This document shows, in pieces, positions 122-51,662 of a stretch of 61,355 bases of DNA; position 1 is the first letter of the stretch; the number at the start of each line of letters is the position of its first letter. The stretch spans positions 1 through 61,355 of the IMG/VR virus record IMGVR_UViG_3300037180_000072. The stretch is one strand, 5' to 3'. The notes below the pieces were generated by a model, which was not told the DNA's origin, ran no database searches, and was given only the letters and a program-made list of their open reading frames with translations. The position numbers and the translations under genes are program-made. Source of the stretch: a virus.

Positions 122-1786
122 TTATTGCCCCGACGAAAAAATCAAATGCAACAAAGCCTTGTCGGCGCCGGTTAGGTGGGCAATCCCCTCAAGAGTCGCT
201 CCCTTAGCCACCATTTTTCCTACCTGCCACAAAGCTTGCTTTTGCAAATATTTCCCAACCTCGGGAGCCTCGTCACCAAACTGCGCAGTCGCGTCTTCGG
301 TCGGCATTTTGTTGAAATCGCGGAACGAACCAATATAATCCGTCTTGGGTGCGAAGCCGAAAGACTGTTTCGCAGTTTGAAGCCAGCCTTTGCCAGTGTT
401 GGACTGCAAAATATCCTGCAGCGCTCTCTGCCCAGTCGCAGTCGTGGGCTCAAATTGTGTGATACTTACCCGGCTCTGCTCGACAGCGTTTCGCAATGAC
501 TGCGAAGAATCGTCACCCATAAACTCCTGCAAACGCCCAGGACGGCCTGGAGTTTTACCGATAGACGCTCTTTGAAGGCGAGGAGACAATTTGTTTGGAT
601 CAACCTGCTCACCTTCCCCAATTCCACTGACGCCCGAGGTAGAACCAACGACGTGGTTATTTATGTCATACGAGGCTTTATATCGCTTCCAGTCCGCTGC
701 AGCGGAATCAACGTCGATGCCTGCGGCTTTTGCTTTCGTCATCGCATCGCCAACTTGATTCTCTAGGCCAATGCGCTCCTGCTCCAACTTGCCTGCAAGT
801 TCTTCATCGCCATTCGTAATCGCGTTTTGAATCCCGGTATTCTTGAGTTTGATTTTTCCCAGAAGATCATCTTTGATATCGACGCCCGTCACAGATTTGA
901 TTTGGGCATAAGTGGCTTTCGACCGAGCTTGCAACTGATCGCCCACGTCCTGATAGACTTGGCGGATAGGAGTAGAGGGATCGACCGGCCTTAAGCCAGC
1001 ATCTTGGGCTGCGGCGTCTGCGCTTGAGCGAATGGCCCCTTGCACCTGGGGCTGCACATCGGAAACGGTTGGACCTTCCGTCACGGCTTCCGCGCCCGCC
1101 GAGATTGGAGCTTTGGCCGCGTTTCGAGCCGCAACTTGCTCTATGCGCTGGCGGAAAGGATTCGGACGAGCCGGTGCGGATGCGGCTTCGGCGGATGCGG
1201 CTTCGGCGGTTGTGGTCGTCGGCACAACAGCATCCGTAGTCGCGGCTTCTGCGTCCGCACCAGCGCCGCCACCCAGCAAAAGTGTAGCCGCTGCCGTGCT
1301 TGCGTCAATTAAGGTGCGAGCGGTCGCGCGGGTAGGATTAGCTTTGAATGCGTCCACTACACTCTGCACCGGAGCAATGTTTAACATATGCTGGCGAGCT
1401 ACATTATCTACCGCACGCAAAGAATCACCAACCGAAGCCCCGCTTGACCGGGATTTTTCGTATTGGTGGATCAAAGGAAAAATTTGTTCGACTTGATGAG
1501 TAAATTGGACAGCAGGAATGGAATCCCAAATACCACGAGGGCTCAAAGTGTTTTTGATGAAGCCGGTAATGTCGTTTGAGGCGTCTTGTTTGCCTTTGGC
1601 GAGATCGGAACCTGGCGCGCCGTTCAATAACCCACTGAGTGTTCCCTGCGCGGGTTGGCTTGGCGCAACAGCAGTAGCACCGGCGGGCAAAGGAAATTGT
1701 TGTGTATCGGTACCGCCAGCGGAAGATGAGCCCGACGAATCAGCAGGCGTAGCGCCGGGAGGCAGTGGAAATGGTTGCGGAGGCAT
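122..1786 (-). CDS. Putative internal virion / ejection protein
   Basis: Protein of 554 residues. A Pro/Ala/Ser-rich N-terminus (1-60) is followed by an Ala-rich helical body and a stretch rich in charged helix near 290-370. No enzymatic motif was recognised. It is the last gene of the late tail operon and starts 2 bases after the preceding stop (1789). Its size, low complexity and place after the tail nozzle gene match the internal proteins that podoviruses inject with the DNA. This is a positional inference, not a homology call. Confidence 0.4.
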   Translation of the reverse strand: MPPQPFPLPPGATPADSSGSSSAGGTDTQQFPLPAGATAVAPSQPAQGTLSGLLNGAPGSDLAKGKQDASNDITGFIKNTLSPRGIWDSIPAVQFTHQVEQIFPLIHQYEKSRSSGASVGDSLRAVDNVARQHMLNIAPVQSVVDAFKANPTRATARTLIDASTAAATLLLGGGAGADAEAATTDAVVPTTTTAEAASAEAASAPARPNPFRQRIEQVAARNAAKAPISAGAEAVTEGPTVSDVQPQVQGAIRSSADAAAQDAGLRPVDPSTPIRQVYQDVGDQLQARSKATYAQIKSVTGVDIKDDLLGKIKLKNTGIQNAITNGDEELAGKLEQERIGLENQVGDAMTKAKAAGIDVDSAAADWKRYKASYDINNHVVGSTSGVSGIGEGEQVDPNKLSPRLQRASIGKTPGRPGRLQEFMGDDSSQSLRNAVEQSRVSITQFEPTTATGQRALQDILQSNTGKGWLQTAKQSFGFAPKTDYIGSFRDFNKMPTEDATAQFGDEAPEVGKYLQKQALWQVGKMVAKGATLEGIAHLTGADKALLHLIFSSGQ

Positions 1787-1788
1787 GA

Positions 1789-3876
1789 CTACTGTCCCCC
1801 GTATACACTACCGTCGCTCGTGTACCAAGTTTTTCCATCGTCGGTGTACAAAATTCCGTGTTCTTGTGTAGCACTGGCTTGTTTGAAGTCGCCGAGGTTC
1901 GCGTGAACTTTACTCGCGGCGCTTCCCGCAGGAGCGGGTGTCGATGCCGGGCTATCCTGAAGAATATCGCCCTCACGCTGTTGAACATATCCATTGGTGC
2001 CGATGCGTCCTTTAACTTGGGACTTGACATTCTCCCGAGATTGGTCAACAACGCCATCAAACTGGCCTTGGTTCAGATTGTAAATGAACGTGTCCGCTGA
2101 CGCCTGCCGAGCAGAATCGGTCGGAGTTCCGCCTCCAATGACCTTGGCGTAATCATCCGCCGCACCAAGCACTGCGGCTCGATAGGTCGCAAGTGCCGGA
2201 CTTCCGGCTTGGTACTTTAGCCAATCAGAATATGTATTGAGTGCGGGAATCTTCGTATTGCCAAGGGCATCGTGGGCCGCTTTCAATTGGTCAAGCATTC
2301 CACCAGGCTGGGCAAGGCTGCGAGCAGAACCGTAGAAAACTTGGTTCCCCGGCTCTTTCAACGCTTGCTCTCCGACAATTTCGTTGGTGGCGTTATAGCT
2401 AGGGTTAATTTTCTTAGCCGCGTCGATGGCTTCCGCAATAGCTCCCGGCGTAAATTTGTTGGTTTTCAAATCGGCCAGAGTAACATCTCCTGCCGCCAAA
2501 GCTTTTCCAATGTCGGCCACATTTCCCTGTTCGGCCAACACTTTAGCGTTTTCTGCGCTGTACATATCCGACAGATATGCGCGATGCGCACTTGTCGCCT
2601 GAGCCAATAAACGAGTCTCCCGGACTTTTTTGTCAGGATCGGTTTCCGTTGCAATCATGTTTTTCAGCATCGGAACCGCCGCCGAAGATTTCGCGCCTTC
2701 CATCTCACTCGGGTCGGTTTCCAACTTAAACAGCGGGTCCGTCGATTGCTGCTTCGCTACTAGGTCGGCTTTGGCCGTCAACTTCGCCACAGCATCCGCT
2801 GAAAGTGCAGCCTTGTTCTGCGCCAGGAGCACGGCTTGGCGTTTCTGTTGCGGCGTGGAGTTCGGGTCAGCCAATGTTTTTCGAGCCATAGCTACCACGG
2901 GGTCGTCGTTTCCTTTGGAGTCCTGTAATTCTTTTCCGGCAGCGTCTAAAATATATCCTTGGCGCATATTGAATATTGAAGGGGTGGCTGTGGCCGCAGC
3001 GGAAGGCGAAGCAGTCGCGGGTTGGGGCACCGCAGTCGCGGGTTGACCCGCCGCAGGCGCAGCCGTACCCAAAGGAGGTGCATTTGTCGTAGCTGGCGCA
3101 CCAGGAGTAGCCGTCGAATTTGACGCAGGCACACCAGATGGTGACGCGGGGGCTCCACTCGCGGGCGCAGCAGCGGGCGCAGCAGCGGGCGTGTTGGACT
3201 GACCCGTAAGTTGGTAAACCTGACCGCTGTTGGGATCGACACCCCAGCCCTGGGGTACTTGGCCGCGACTGTCGAACATATCTTGAGCTTGAGTTTGATT
3301 CGCCAGCGCGCCTGCAGTAAGTTGCTGTTGTTTACCCTGAACATCCAAATCCGATTGCGTCATCTGGTTGTGAATCGTAGACATGTACAAAATATTCTGG
3401 CCCACTTTTTCGTTTGTATCCGCAACCATCAAATCCTGTTGCAACTTTGCGTTCTTCTGCGCCTGCGCGGCCTCTTGAGCTTGAATTTTTTGCTGCTGCT
3501 GATTGGCATAATATTGCTGAACTTCTGGCGCGCCACCTTCGCGGCCATGAGAAGAAACAGAGGTGCCCGCAGCCGACAGGGCGACCCCAATTCCGGCTAT
3601 CATATTTAGCAAGCGAGAATGGGGTACCGTCGGAGGAACAATCGGAATTTTTGCGTCTTGCTGAACTTGAGAATATGCAGCTTGAGCGCGGCCCATACTG
3701 TCGCGGGCCGCTGCCTCCGCCGCATCCCCAGACGAAGATGAATTCGTGGGGGCAGCATTAACCGCGCCGGGTGCGTTCGACACCAACGGCACAGTGTTGG
3801 CAGACACAGGGGCGGGCGAAGACACCACGGGCAAGGAAGCGGGTGCTGGGGTCGGATTTGGTGTCGGATCAGCCAT
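1789..3876 (-). CDS. Large Ala/Pro-rich putative internal virion protein
   Basis: Protein of 695 residues. The N-terminal 70 residues are Pro/Ala/Ser-rich and disordered-looking. Residues of about 110-190 are Gln/Ala-rich and probably coiled coil (QQQQKIQAQEAAQAQ). A long Ala/Pro linker follows at about 220-300, then a helical C-terminal half. No catalytic motif is visible. It sits between two similar low-complexity genes in the tail operon. A structural or ejection role is inferred from its position. Confidence 0.4.
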   Translation of the reverse strand: MADPTPNPTPAPASLPVVSSPAPVSANTVPLVSNAPGAVNAAPTNSSSSGDAAEAAARDSMGRAQAAYSQVQQDAKIPIVPPTVPHSRLLNMIAGIGVALSAAGTSVSSHGREGGAPEVQQYYANQQQQKIQAQEAAQAQKNAKLQQDLMVADTNEKVGQNILYMSTIHNQMTQSDLDVQGKQQQLTAGALANQTQAQDMFDSRGQVPQGWGVDPNSGQVYQLTGQSNTPAAAPAAAPASGAPASPSGVPASNSTATPGAPATTNAPPLGTAAPAAGQPATAVPQPATASPSAAATATPSIFNMRQGYILDAAGKELQDSKGNDDPVVAMARKTLADPNSTPQQKRQAVLLAQNKAALSADAVAKLTAKADLVAKQQSTDPLFKLETDPSEMEGAKSSAAVPMLKNMIATETDPDKKVRETRLLAQATSAHRAYLSDMYSAENAKVLAEQGNVADIGKALAAGDVTLADLKTNKFTPGAIAEAIDAAKKINPSYNATNEIVGEQALKEPGNQVFYGSARSLAQPGGMLDQLKAAHDALGNTKIPALNTYSDWLKYQAGSPALATYRAAVLGAADDYAKVIGGGTPTDSARQASADTFIYNLNQGQFDGVVDQSRENVKSQVKGRIGTNGYVQQREGDILQDSPASTPAPAGSAASKVHANLGDFKQASATQEHGILYTDDGKTWYTSDGSVYGGQ

Positions 3877-47798: not shown

Positions 47799-47874
47799 TG
47801 GAGCCCGAAGATGGACTTGAACCACCGACCCGCTGTTTACAAAACAGCCGCTCTGCCAACTGAGCTATTCGGGC
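47799..47874 (-). tRNA. tRNA-Thr (anticodon UGU)
   Basis: A full cloverleaf on the minus strand, 76 nt including an encoded CCA. The acceptor GCCCGAA pairs with TTCGGGC, the D-arm has GGCAGAGC, the anticodon stem GCTGT/ACAGC holds loop TTTGTAA (anticodon TGT), and the T-arm reads GGTGG-TTCAAGT-CCATC. Confidence 0.93.
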
Positions 47875-49292: not shown

Positions 49293-49889
49293 CTATTGCT
49301 TTTGGTGCGTATTCAAATACGTGATTCCTGCGGCTAAAATCCCTGGGTTGTCTTTCGCGTGGCCCAGCATGTGATTGCACCGGGAGCACAACAAACCTCG
49401 CACGCATTTACCGCAGGACTTCTTCTGATTAGGGCAACAGCCGTGATCGTGATCTACGCAGAGCCTCTTGTCTGTGTCATTGAGGCCACCGCAGATTGCA
49501 CAACCGCCGTTTTGCTTCGCTAGGAGAGCGTCGTATCTTTCCCGAGACATTTGGTAGTTATGTCTCAGGTTGCTCTCCCAAAAGAAATCTGGATTTTCCG
49601 CCACGTTCTTGGCTCGCCATGCAACCATGTAATCGTGGTCGTAGGCTTTTCCAGTTTCTTCGGCGATCCTCTTTCGGTTGGCTCGACGTTTTATTCCTGC
49701 CTGCTCCGTCTTTGCCGCCCGATTATAAATCGCCCGCGCTTTATCAGGATTGCGGTGTCGCCAGTCCTGACCTTGCGCATAGACGCAGGGTTTGCACCAC
49801 GTATGATGGCCGCCCTTGTATCCCTTGCGTACTGCAAACTCATCAATCGACTTCTCGATCCCACAACGGGTGCAGGTTTTGGTTTCCAT
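49293..49889 (-). CDS. EndoVII-type HNH endonuclease with zinc finger
   Basis: Protein of 198 residues. An N-terminal Cys4 finger (CTRCGIEKSIDEFA ... WCKPCVYAQ) is followed by a basic linker, then the endonuclease VII domain: YDALLAKQNGGCAICGG ... LCVDHDHGCC ... CVRGLLCSRCNHMLGHAKD. It is free-standing, led by late motif 8, and lies between the major capsid and decoration-like genes. Probably a mobile homing endonuclease. Confidence 0.88.
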   Translation of the reverse strand: METKTCTRCGIEKSIDEFAVRKGYKGGHHTWCKPCVYAQGQDWRHRNPDKARAIYNRAAKTEQAGIKRRANRKRIAEETGKAYDHDYMVAWRAKNVAENPDFFWESNLRHNYQMSRERYDALLAKQNGGCAICGGLNDTDKRLCVDHDHGCCPNQKKSCGKCVRGLLCSRCNHMLGHAKDNPGILAAGITYLNTHQKQ

Positions 49890-49943: not shown

Positions 49944-50870
49944 TCAGATGGCACTAACTTCAGAACGAACGCGTCTAAACCCAGGAGTGGAATTGGTCTG
50001 GGGCCTGGCCACCACACCCAAAAACCAGTCGTAACTTACGATTGCCCTTGTCTGCAGCATCGGGTTCGAAAGGTCGATGTCGTTATCGCCAAATGTCTTG
50101 ACGTTAACCTTGAAGCTAGGGTTGCGCGGCACGCGGTTGCCCAGCAGTTCCGACGCCATCATGGCTTCGCGGCCAACGATGTACGTCCCGTATCCGGTCT
50201 TTCCGACCGACGGATAGTTCGTGTAAGTCGGCGTGGTCTGGGTGCGGATGATGCGAACTCCGCTCCATTCCAGCACCGTATACCCGCGCGTCATGTCACT
50301 CTTCAGGACACTGGCGCCAGCTTCGGAGCGCTTGAGCACGTCAACGGCGCTGCCCGCAGAGTTGTCGCTCATAAAATCATAAACGACATAGGGGTGCATG
50401 GCACTCGTGTACAGCCCGCCATCGCGGCCCGGCACGGCGTTGCCCATCAACTGGGACTCGGCCTTGCGGATCGTGTTGGAAAGCATGAACTCGTTGTCAA
50501 GCAAATCGATGCGAGCGGACGACTGCGCGGTTGCGGCAGCTTCGAATCCGTTGATCGCGATCAGATTGCTCGTGAGGGCGCCGCGATAAGACAGGTTGCG
50601 GCTCGCGTCCAGCGTAATGTCCGCGAGGAACATTTGCTGGGCGACGTTCGAGATGCCGATCCAGTCACCATACTCATCAGCAAACGCGTCGCTGAAGACT
50701 TGGTTCAACTGGAGTGACGGACCCGGAATGCCTTCAGACAAATCGTAGGTCGCGGCAGCGTACGGAGTTTGGCCGTAGAACTGGAGCGTGCGGCCAGATC
50801 GGCGCGGGAGCGGGCGGAAATCGCATAATTCTTCCAAAAACGGAGTGTTGAATTGCCCAAGACTGTTACT
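49944..50870 (-). CDS. Major capsid protein, exon 2
   Basis: The frame is open from about 50890 but has no ATG. From 50870 it reads SNSLGQFNTPFLEELCDFRPLPRRSGRTLQFYGQTPY, the typical start of a HK97-fold capsid protein (GRTxxFxxxxP, then SEGIPGPS), with later EYGDWIGIS and a C-terminal P-domain-like end. About 309 residues are in this exon. It is preceded by a group I intron core and a late motif, and followed by another late motif, as expected for a highly expressed capsid gene. The 5' exon is not certain. Confidence 0.8.
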   Translation of the reverse strand, partial: SNSLGQFNTPFLEELCDFRPLPRRSGRTLQFYGQTPYAAATYDLSEGIPGPSLQLNQVFSDAFADEYGDWIGISNVAQQMFLADITLDASRNLSYRGALTSNLIAINGFEAAATAQSSARIDLLDNEFMLSNTIRKAESQLMGNAVPGRDGGLYTSAMHPYVVYDFMSDNSAGSAVDVLKRSEAGASVLKSDMTRGYTVLEWSGVRIIRTQTTPTYTNYPSVGKTGYGTYIVGREAMMASELLGNRVPRNPSFKVNVKTFGDNDIDLSNPMLQTRAIVSYDWFLGVVARPQTNSTPGFRRVRSEVSAI

Positions 50871-51076
50871 CGCTCGCGCGAGGCCAGGTCATTTCTGCCT
50901 GACTCTTCCGGTTGTTATTCCCGGAAAGTTCGGACTATTGCATCACCCCGAAGGGTGTCTTCTCGCTTAGTCTCTCACGGTGGCTTTCGCCTTCCGCCTC
51001 GTTGGCATTTCAGCTTTCGAGTCAATCAGAGAAGATTTTCTGTTCCAGATTTCGCTGGACAGGAGCAGCTATGTTT
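50871..51076 (-). other. Group I intron in the major capsid gene
   Basis: Minus-strand RNA shows the ordered core. P2 is CTGTCCAG/CTGGAACAG (51062-51040). P3 is CTTCTC (51034-51029) with GAGAAG (50964-50959). P5 is CTCG/CGAG. P6 has a GGC-GAAA-GCC tetraloop hairpin (about 50992-50982). P7 is GACTA (50972-50968) with TAGTC (50937-50933). P8 is CACCC-TTCG-GGGTG. P9 is CTTTCCGG/CCGGAAGAG (about 50928-50904). The 3' splice G is placed at 50871, giving 206 nt. The exact ends are inferred from P1 (GAGU/GCUC) and frame. No ORF lies inside the core. Confidence 0.8.
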
Positions 51077-51100
51077 ACTCAAGGATCGCTGTGCGATCAT
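51077..51100 (-). CDS. Candidate short exon 1 of the major capsid gene
   Basis: ATG at 51100 followed by seven codons (MIAQRSLS) ending GAGT at the proposed 5' splice site. GAGU pairs with GCUC just before P2, giving a U-G pair at the splice site as group I introns require. Joined to 50870 the frame continues SNSLGQF. No strong ribosome site precedes the ATG. An alternative start is TTG 51207, just after late motif 9, but its frame closes at 51097. Low confidence. Confidence 0.35.
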
Positions 51101-51217
51101 ATGCGATTTGTGGAAATGCCGCCAAGGTCGTGGATGTGACGCCCGGAGGTAGAATCAAGTGGACACCTTCTCTGCCCAAGTTGGGCTACTGGGAGGAGGC
51201 TCTTGCTCAAGAAGACT

Positions 51218-51248: not shown

Positions 51249-51662
51249 CTAGGAGTGACGACGAAGATAAGCCGCTGCAGCCTGCAGAATATCAGTGTTT
51301 TCTTGCGCATACCCGATCACCGAGTTGCACCGTCCGTGAACAAGTGCTCGAAACTTTTTAGTCTTGTGGTCGTGGTCTACTACTAATGTGGTTTGAAGAT
51401 CGTCGTCAACCGGGGGTTTTCCACAAAGAGCGCAAAGCCCATTTTGTTTTACTAATTCCTCTTCATACCGCTCGGGAGTAATTCCATATGACCGCTTCAA
51501 ATGGTGACGGCGATGAAACGGATTATTTCCACGTTGATAGTCGCGCGTTCGTTTACATATACATGTTTTGCATTCGCTGGCATGCGGAGGATAGAAATTG
51601 TTGGGATCGCGCTCGCCGCACTTCTTGCAGATACGGGGTTTTCTACTACCTTTGACTGGCAT
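51249..51662 (-). CDS. EndoVII-type HNH endonuclease, candidate intron-homing partner
   Basis: Protein of 137 residues. An N-terminal Cys4 finger (CKKCGERDPNNFYP ... CKTCICKRTRDYQ) is followed by the EndoVII core GLCALCGKPPVDDD ... LVVDHDHKTKKFRALVHGRCNSVIGYAQEN. It lies just upstream of the group I intron, outside its core. Its ribosome site (AGGGAGGG) is within the hairpin CTCCC-TTTA-GGGAG, as in translationally controlled homing endonucleases. Confidence 0.88.
   Translation of the reverse strand: MPVKGSRKPRICKKCGERDPNNFYPPHASECKTCICKRTRDYQRGNNPFHRRHHLKRSYGITPERYEEELVKQNGLCALCGKPPVDDDLQTTLVVDHDHKTKKFRALVHGRCNSVIGYAQENTDILQAAAAYLRRHS

What the first reader, a model, noticed from the sequence alone, without database searches (positions are those of the whole stretch)
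50871..51100. Compact group I intron near the start of the major capsid gene
The capsid frame has no start codon, and just upstream the minus strand shows ordered P2, P3, P5, P6 (GAAA loop), P7 (GACTA/TAGTC), P8 (UUCG loop) and P9 helices of a group I ribozyme in about 206 nt. With a splice at 51077/51076 and 50871/50870 the U-G pair and the frame both work. An EndoVII-type HNH gene lies directly upstream, as a possible homing partner acting in trans.
Basis: partly seen in the sequence, partly recalled or inferred. Interest (0 to 1): 0.82.

Follow-up and report, generated by a model that had tools for sequence, protein, structure and literature searches.

The report
Tiny self-splicing intron in capsid gene
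The major capsid gene of this phage is interrupted by a 219-base self-splicing (group I) intron that must be cut out of the messenger RNA to make the coat protein; it is a real and well-supported new example of something already shown by experiment in other phages.

Summary
The intron is real, but its 3' edge and the first exon were misread. Relatives of this capsid gene without an intron read ILPPGV..RTAILE-W-QFNTPFLEEL. The window holds the same protein split after GAG U: exon 1 is 51158-51077 (TTG start), intron 51076-50858 (219 nt), exon 2 50857-49944, all on the minus strand; joining restores 331 aa. Its 3' site (50871/50870) lies inside helix P9.2 and should be 50858/50857. Its N-terminus (MIAQRSLS) is in the wrong frame.

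A covariance model built from 23 other phage introns, none from this capsid gene, finds the window copy at 185.7 bits (E about 2e-35). It also finds the BAKA mycobacteriophage tail-gene intron, whose splicing was shown by RT-PCR. Forty helix pairs, including the P3/P7 pseudoknot, are 99% maintained, with 22 pairs changed on both sides. Rfam's group I model misses this intron type, BAKA's included.

Two other contigs carry the intron at the same site. Both have a closely related Endo VII-type endonuclease gene upstream, which fits 'collaborative homing' as in cyanophage S-PM2, but cleavage is untested. The closest precedent is the spliced capsid intron of mycobacteriophage LittleE. New member of a known kind.

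The parts
51077..51158 (-). Capsid exon 1 (82 nt, TTG start, ends ...AUC CUU GAG U)
   Evidence: Matches ILPPGV..RTAILE of 50+ intronless relatives; spliced ORF open over 331 aa
50858..51076 (-). Group I intron, 219 nt, no ORF; starts AAACAUAG, ends ...AACAGUCUUG
   Evidence: Exact junction from intronless relatives; covariance model
49944..50857 (-). Capsid exon 2 (914 nt incl. stop), starts GG CAA UUC
   Evidence: PHROG 1357 major head protein; 75-96% identical to relatives
51063..51080 (-). P1: exon GAGU (51080-51077) with guide sequence GCUC (51066-51063); U-G pair at the 5' splice site
   Evidence: MFE fold in window, L038 and L070
51040..51062 (-). P2 hairpin, loop CGAAAU
   Evidence: Fold; stem changes in L038 and L070 with pairing kept
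50958..51035 (-). P3: 51035-51029 (UCUUCUC) with 50964-50958 (GAGAAGA)
   Evidence: 5 of 7 pairs changed on both sides among 27 introns
50977..51021 (-). P4 (51021-51018/51001-50998), P5 (51014-51013/51006-51005), P6 and P6a with GAAA loop (50997-50977)
   Evidence: Invariant P4/P5; P6a covaries
50932..50974 (-). P7: G50974, bulged A50973, GACUA 50972-50968 with UAGUCC 50937-50932 (pseudoknot with P3)
   Evidence: G-C to A-U and A-U to G-C two-sided changes
50944..50957 (-). P8, UUCG loop
   Evidence: Covaries in 3 of 4 pairs
50869..50925 (-). P9 (50925-50921/50911-50907), P9.1 (50903-50899/50887-50883), P9.2 (50882-50869)
   Evidence: P9 and P9.1 covary; P9.2 from the sequence and fold
51249..51662 (-). 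Free-standing Endo VII-type endonuclease (137 aa), candidate homing partner
   Evidence: Pfam Endonuclease_7 2e-17 at residues 53-134; best relatives are beside the two other intron-bearing capsid genes

Best explanation
A 219-nt ORF-less group I intron sits between codons for Glu and Trp near the 5' end of the major capsid gene. In the transcript it folds into the standard P3-P9 core. Guanosine attacks after U51077, which is paired with G51066 in P1, and the exons are joined at 50858/50857, restoring a 331-aa capsid protein. Without splicing, translation stops at the splice site (GAG UAA). Spread of the intron probably depends on the free-standing Endo VII-type endonuclease encoded just upstream, cutting intronless capsid genes in trans (collaborative homing). 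Intron identity, boundaries and need for splicing are shown by comparison. Autocatalysis is inferred from the family. The homing step is inferred and only weakly supported (about 0.5); the confidence given is for the intron and its boundaries.
For: Intronless relatives give the exact joined reading ILE-W-QFNTP. Spliced ORF is open, unspliced ORF stops. Same intron at the same site in L038 and L070 with changes that keep P2, P9 and P9.1 paired. 27-intron alignment: 99.2% of cells paired, 22 pairs with two-sided changes, 0 of 500 shuffles as good, slid controls 31-40% paired. Model built without any capsid-site copy finds the window at E 1.9e-35 and the RT-PCR-verified BAKA intron at E 4e-8 (PMC3706429). 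U before the 5' site and G at the 3' end. The endonuclease is closest to those beside the other two intron-bearing genes; that subfamily is the only one found with the intron, 3 of 6 against 0 of about 31 deduplicated loci, p 0.003 without correction for kinship.
Against: Rfam's group I model gives no match at any tested threshold, though it equally misses the verified BAKA intron. P1 is short (4-5 pairs) and P10 is at most 3 pairs. The same endonuclease subfamily lies beside three intronless capsid genes (L044, L042, L007), and no raised exon identity around the site was seen that would mark recent co-conversion. No RNA data.
Confidence: 0.95

Rival explanations
(A rival to the homing part only.)
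For: Endo VII-type genes of other subfamilies sit at the same place beside intronless capsid genes in many relatives. Three members of the same subfamily have no intron beside them. Intron copies of this family occur at many sites in other genes.
Against: Closest endonuclease relatives are those beside the other two intron-bearing capsid genes. Direct precedent of F-CphI, an Endo VII-motif enzyme beside an intron-bearing psbA gene (PMC6083498).
Confidence: 0.45
2. The insertion is a degenerate intron that no longer splices and the capsid gene is dead or expressed from an internal start.
For: No RNA evidence. Short P1. An ORF starting at TTG 50837 is open.
Against: All core helices and invariant core residues are intact, and the exons remain open and conserved with an in-frame junction. 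The internal start would remove about 33 conserved N-terminal residues.
Confidence: 0.03
3. Chance helices or an assembly artefact rather than an intron.
For: Plain fold is only z -2.99.
Against: Same insert at the same site in two other contigs from other samples, and covariation across 27 introns.
Confidence: 0.01

Closest known systems
Capsid-gene group I intron of Cluster J mycobacteriophage LittleE and tail-gene intron of BAKA/Optimus (Pope et al. 2013, PMC3706429)
   Same: Group I intron in the major capsid gene (LittleE); U before and G at the ends; BAKA intron is ORF-less and is found by a model built from this intron's relatives; splicing shown by RT-PCR, for LittleE also by protein N-terminus
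   Different: Different phage lineage, capsid family and insertion site; LittleE intron is 819 bp and carries an ORF; BAKA intron is 265 bp; here 219 nt and no ORF
psbA intron plus free-standing endonuclease F-CphI of cyanophage S-PM2 (PMC6083498, and Zeng 2009 cited there)
   Same: Group I intron in a gene next to a free-standing endonuclease with the Endo VII motif at its C-terminus; the endonuclease provides mobility in trans
   Different: Host gene is psbA, not capsid; cleavage and protection by the intron were shown there, not here
Other compact phage introns of the same sequence family in IMG/VR (about 46 copies found here)
   Same: Same invariant core (CUGAAAUGCCAACGAGGCGGAA, GACUA/UAGUC, GGCAGAAAUGACC, UAACA), ORF-less where boundaries are clear
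   Different: Inserted at other sites, among them other major head, portal and probable terminase genes
Rfam RF00028 group I catalytic intron
   Same: Same overall P3-P9 architecture
   Different: The curated model does not detect this sequence type

Membership tests
Group I intron | P3/P7 pseudoknotted core with P4-P6 and P8, P7 with a bulged base | tested here: met
   99.2% of cells paired, two-sided changes in P3, P6a, P7, P8, P9, P9.1
Group I intron | U at the end of exon 1 paired with G in an internal guide (P1) | tested here: met
   GAGU/GCUC in all three capsid copies
Group I intron | G as last intron base | tested here: met
   Junction ...CUUG|GGCAA fixed by intronless relatives
Group I intron | P10 pairing of exon 2 with the guide | tested here: inconclusive
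   At most GGC with GCU in the window, read by eye; fewer pairs in L038 (sequences)
Group I intron | Guanosine-initiated self-splicing | not testable with these tools
   Needs in vitro transcription; homologous BAKA intron splices in infected cells (PMC3706429)
Rfam RF00028 | Score above the gathering cut-off | tested here: not met
   No match; the model also misses the verified BAKA intron
Collaborative homing (F-CphI type) | Free-standing Endo VII-motif endonuclease adjacent to the intron-bearing gene, motif at the C-terminus | tested here: met
   51249-51662, Endonuclease_7 at residues 53-134 of 137, DHDH...R...N present
Collaborative homing (F-CphI type) | Cleaves the intronless allele near the insertion site | not testable with these tools
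   Needs a cleavage assay
Collaborative homing (F-CphI type) | Intron protects the gene from cleavage | not testable with these tools
   Needs a cleavage assay
Collaborative homing (F-CphI type) | Endonuclease and intron co-occur | tested here: inconclusive
   3 of 6 capsid loci with this endonuclease subfamily have the intron, 0 of about 31 others; not corrected for kinship

The most novel reading that the evidence does not exclude
This intron belongs to a widespread, very compact sequence family of group I introns that the standard Rfam model does not see, specialised to virion structural genes of environmental phages, and mobilised in trans by free-standing Endo VII-type endonucleases at the capsid locus.
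Probability: 0.3. Interest if true: 0.5.

Novelty: new member of a known kind. Interest (0 to 1): 0.38.

Why it matters
Annotation pipelines that rely on the Rfam group I model miss this intron type. They then report capsid genes without a start codon or with a wrong N-terminus. The family model built here finds further such introns in head and packaging genes of uncultured phages. The pairing of an ORF-less intron with a separate Endo VII-type endonuclease offers a second natural system, after S-PM2, in which collaborative homing can be tested.

Tried and rejected
Rfam scans of the window and region: no intron match; taken as a limit of the model because BAKA is missed too. Pattern GAGTAAACANANCTGCTCCT also hit L100 and L101, which lack the intron and are chance matches. 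Co-conversion tract around the site: no clear excess identity. Capsid tree: window and L038 do not group, but support is weak. Endonuclease tree: intron-bearing members do not form a supported clade. No solved structure related to the endonuclease by sequence. Exact-core scan of bacterial and archaeal genomes: one hit, an Acidobacteria metagenome bin from a fen. Scan for further copies of the upstream endonuclease in viral contigs gave only distant relatives.

Full report
What was claimed.

The gene. The capsid ORF as listed starts at an internal TTG (50837) and PHROG 1357 (major head protein) aligns to it only from profile position 54, so the N-terminus is missing. Scanning IMG/VR gave 56 capsid relatives, 55 with the start of the gene, 75-96% identical. 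Nearly all read [start]ILPPGVQSTTLAAFPQIAYDRTAILEWQFNTPFLEEL without interruption. The window has ILPPGVTSTTLAAFPQIAYDRTAILE followed by a stop on one side and QFNTPFLEEL on the other.

The junction. Relatives read GAG TGG CAA TTC. In the window this can only be made by joining GAGT (ending at 51077) to GGCAATTC (starting at 50857). The intron is therefore 51076-50858, 219 nt. The joined frame is open for 331 aa from TTG 51158, while the unspliced frame ends at GAG TAA on the splice site. Its 3' site is 13 nt too early, inside P9.2, and its exon 1 frame is wrong.

The RNA. The minimum-energy fold shows P1, P2, P3, P4, P5, P6 and P8. P7 forms the expected pseudoknot with a bulged base. An exact core string of 19 nt found 46 copies in 42 viral contigs, besides the window's own. 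Aligning 27 introns (the window's included) and naming a 40-pair structure with the pseudoknot, 99.2% of cells are paired and 22 pairs have two-sided changes. None of 500 shuffles reached the values for cells paired, changes or covariation, and slid controls pair 31-40%. Pairs that never vary (P4, P5, most of P6 and P7) neither support nor contradict the structure.

Independent check. A covariance model built without the three capsid-site copies finds the window at 185.7 bits (E 1.9e-35, rough calibration) and the BAKA mycobacteriophage intron at 48.8 bits (E 4e-8). BAKA's intron was shown by RT-PCR to splice, and the related intron in the LittleE capsid gene by RT-PCR and by N-terminal sequencing of the capsid protein (PMC3706429). 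BLAST links the LittleE and BAKA introns (92% identity over 86%). The window intron also matches BAKA over 43 nt near its 3' end. The BAKA intron ends 5 nt after its conserved UAACA, the window intron 6 nt after, which supports the corrected 3' site.

Rfam. RF00028 does not report this intron in the window, nor this type in L038, L059, L063, L068, L071, L096 or BAKA, although it does report two other group I introns in L059. PMC11878797 notes that the Rfam model is incomplete for phage introns.

The neighbour. The 137-aa protein at 51249-51662 has the Endo VII motif at its C-terminus. Its closest relatives among the capsid loci are those beside the other two intron-bearing capsid genes, L038 (67%) and L070 (63%), then L044, L007 and L042 (60, 57 and 52%), which lack the intron. 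The intron-free members of this subfamily carry ATGGAG or TTGGAG where the intron-bearing genes have CTTGAG at the site; this would fit altered, resistant sites but three cases prove nothing. F-CphI of S-PM2 is an exact precedent for the arrangement: a free-standing Endo VII-motif enzyme that cuts intronless psbA, while the intron protects the donor (PMC6083498). I put the trans-homing role here at about 0.5.

Spread of the family. Other copies sit in genes whose flanks match portal (phrog_12) and major head proteins (phrog_267, phrog_283) by profile, and by eye in terminase and further capsid genes. The only exact-core hit among 84,980 bacterial and archaeal genomes is an Acidobacteria bin from a fen. 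The nearest cultured capsid relative is also from an acidobacterial phage, Tunturi_3.

Verdict. A real group I intron with near-certain boundaries, in a new host gene lineage, of a kind already demonstrated in phage capsid genes. Interest is moderate: the family is widespread and escapes Rfam, and it offers a second candidate for collaborative homing.

Noticed in passing
51156-51158 and capsid loci L001-L056: Capsid genes with an Endo VII-type gene directly upstream almost all lack an ATG start (TTG, ACG, ATT or ATC in 15 of 16 deduplicated loci; exception L038), whereas those without it have ATG in 18 of 21 (Fisher p about 1e-6, not corrected for kinship). Whether this reflects an altered endonuclease target site or a leader acquired with the endonuclease is unknown.
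   Followed up: partly
about 49261 (minus strand), gene down to 48648: The gene after the second Endo VII-type gene appears to start with ATT (GAGGAGAGACTACA-ATT-TCTAACGCATCG); relatives have ATG or GTG there, and L041 also has ATT.
   Followed up: partly
49293-49889: A second Endo VII-type endonuclease (198 aa) lies directly downstream of the capsid gene; the capsid gene is flanked by such genes on both sides.
   Followed up: no
L059:680-898 and 1630-1869 (minus): Two RF00028-type introns near one copy of the intron family described here, suggesting several introns in one gene.
   Followed up: no
L060, L062, L073, L077: Three or more introns of the new family within a few kilobases of each other.
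   Followed up: no
47802-47874: tRNA gene on the minus strand (67 bits).
   Followed up: no
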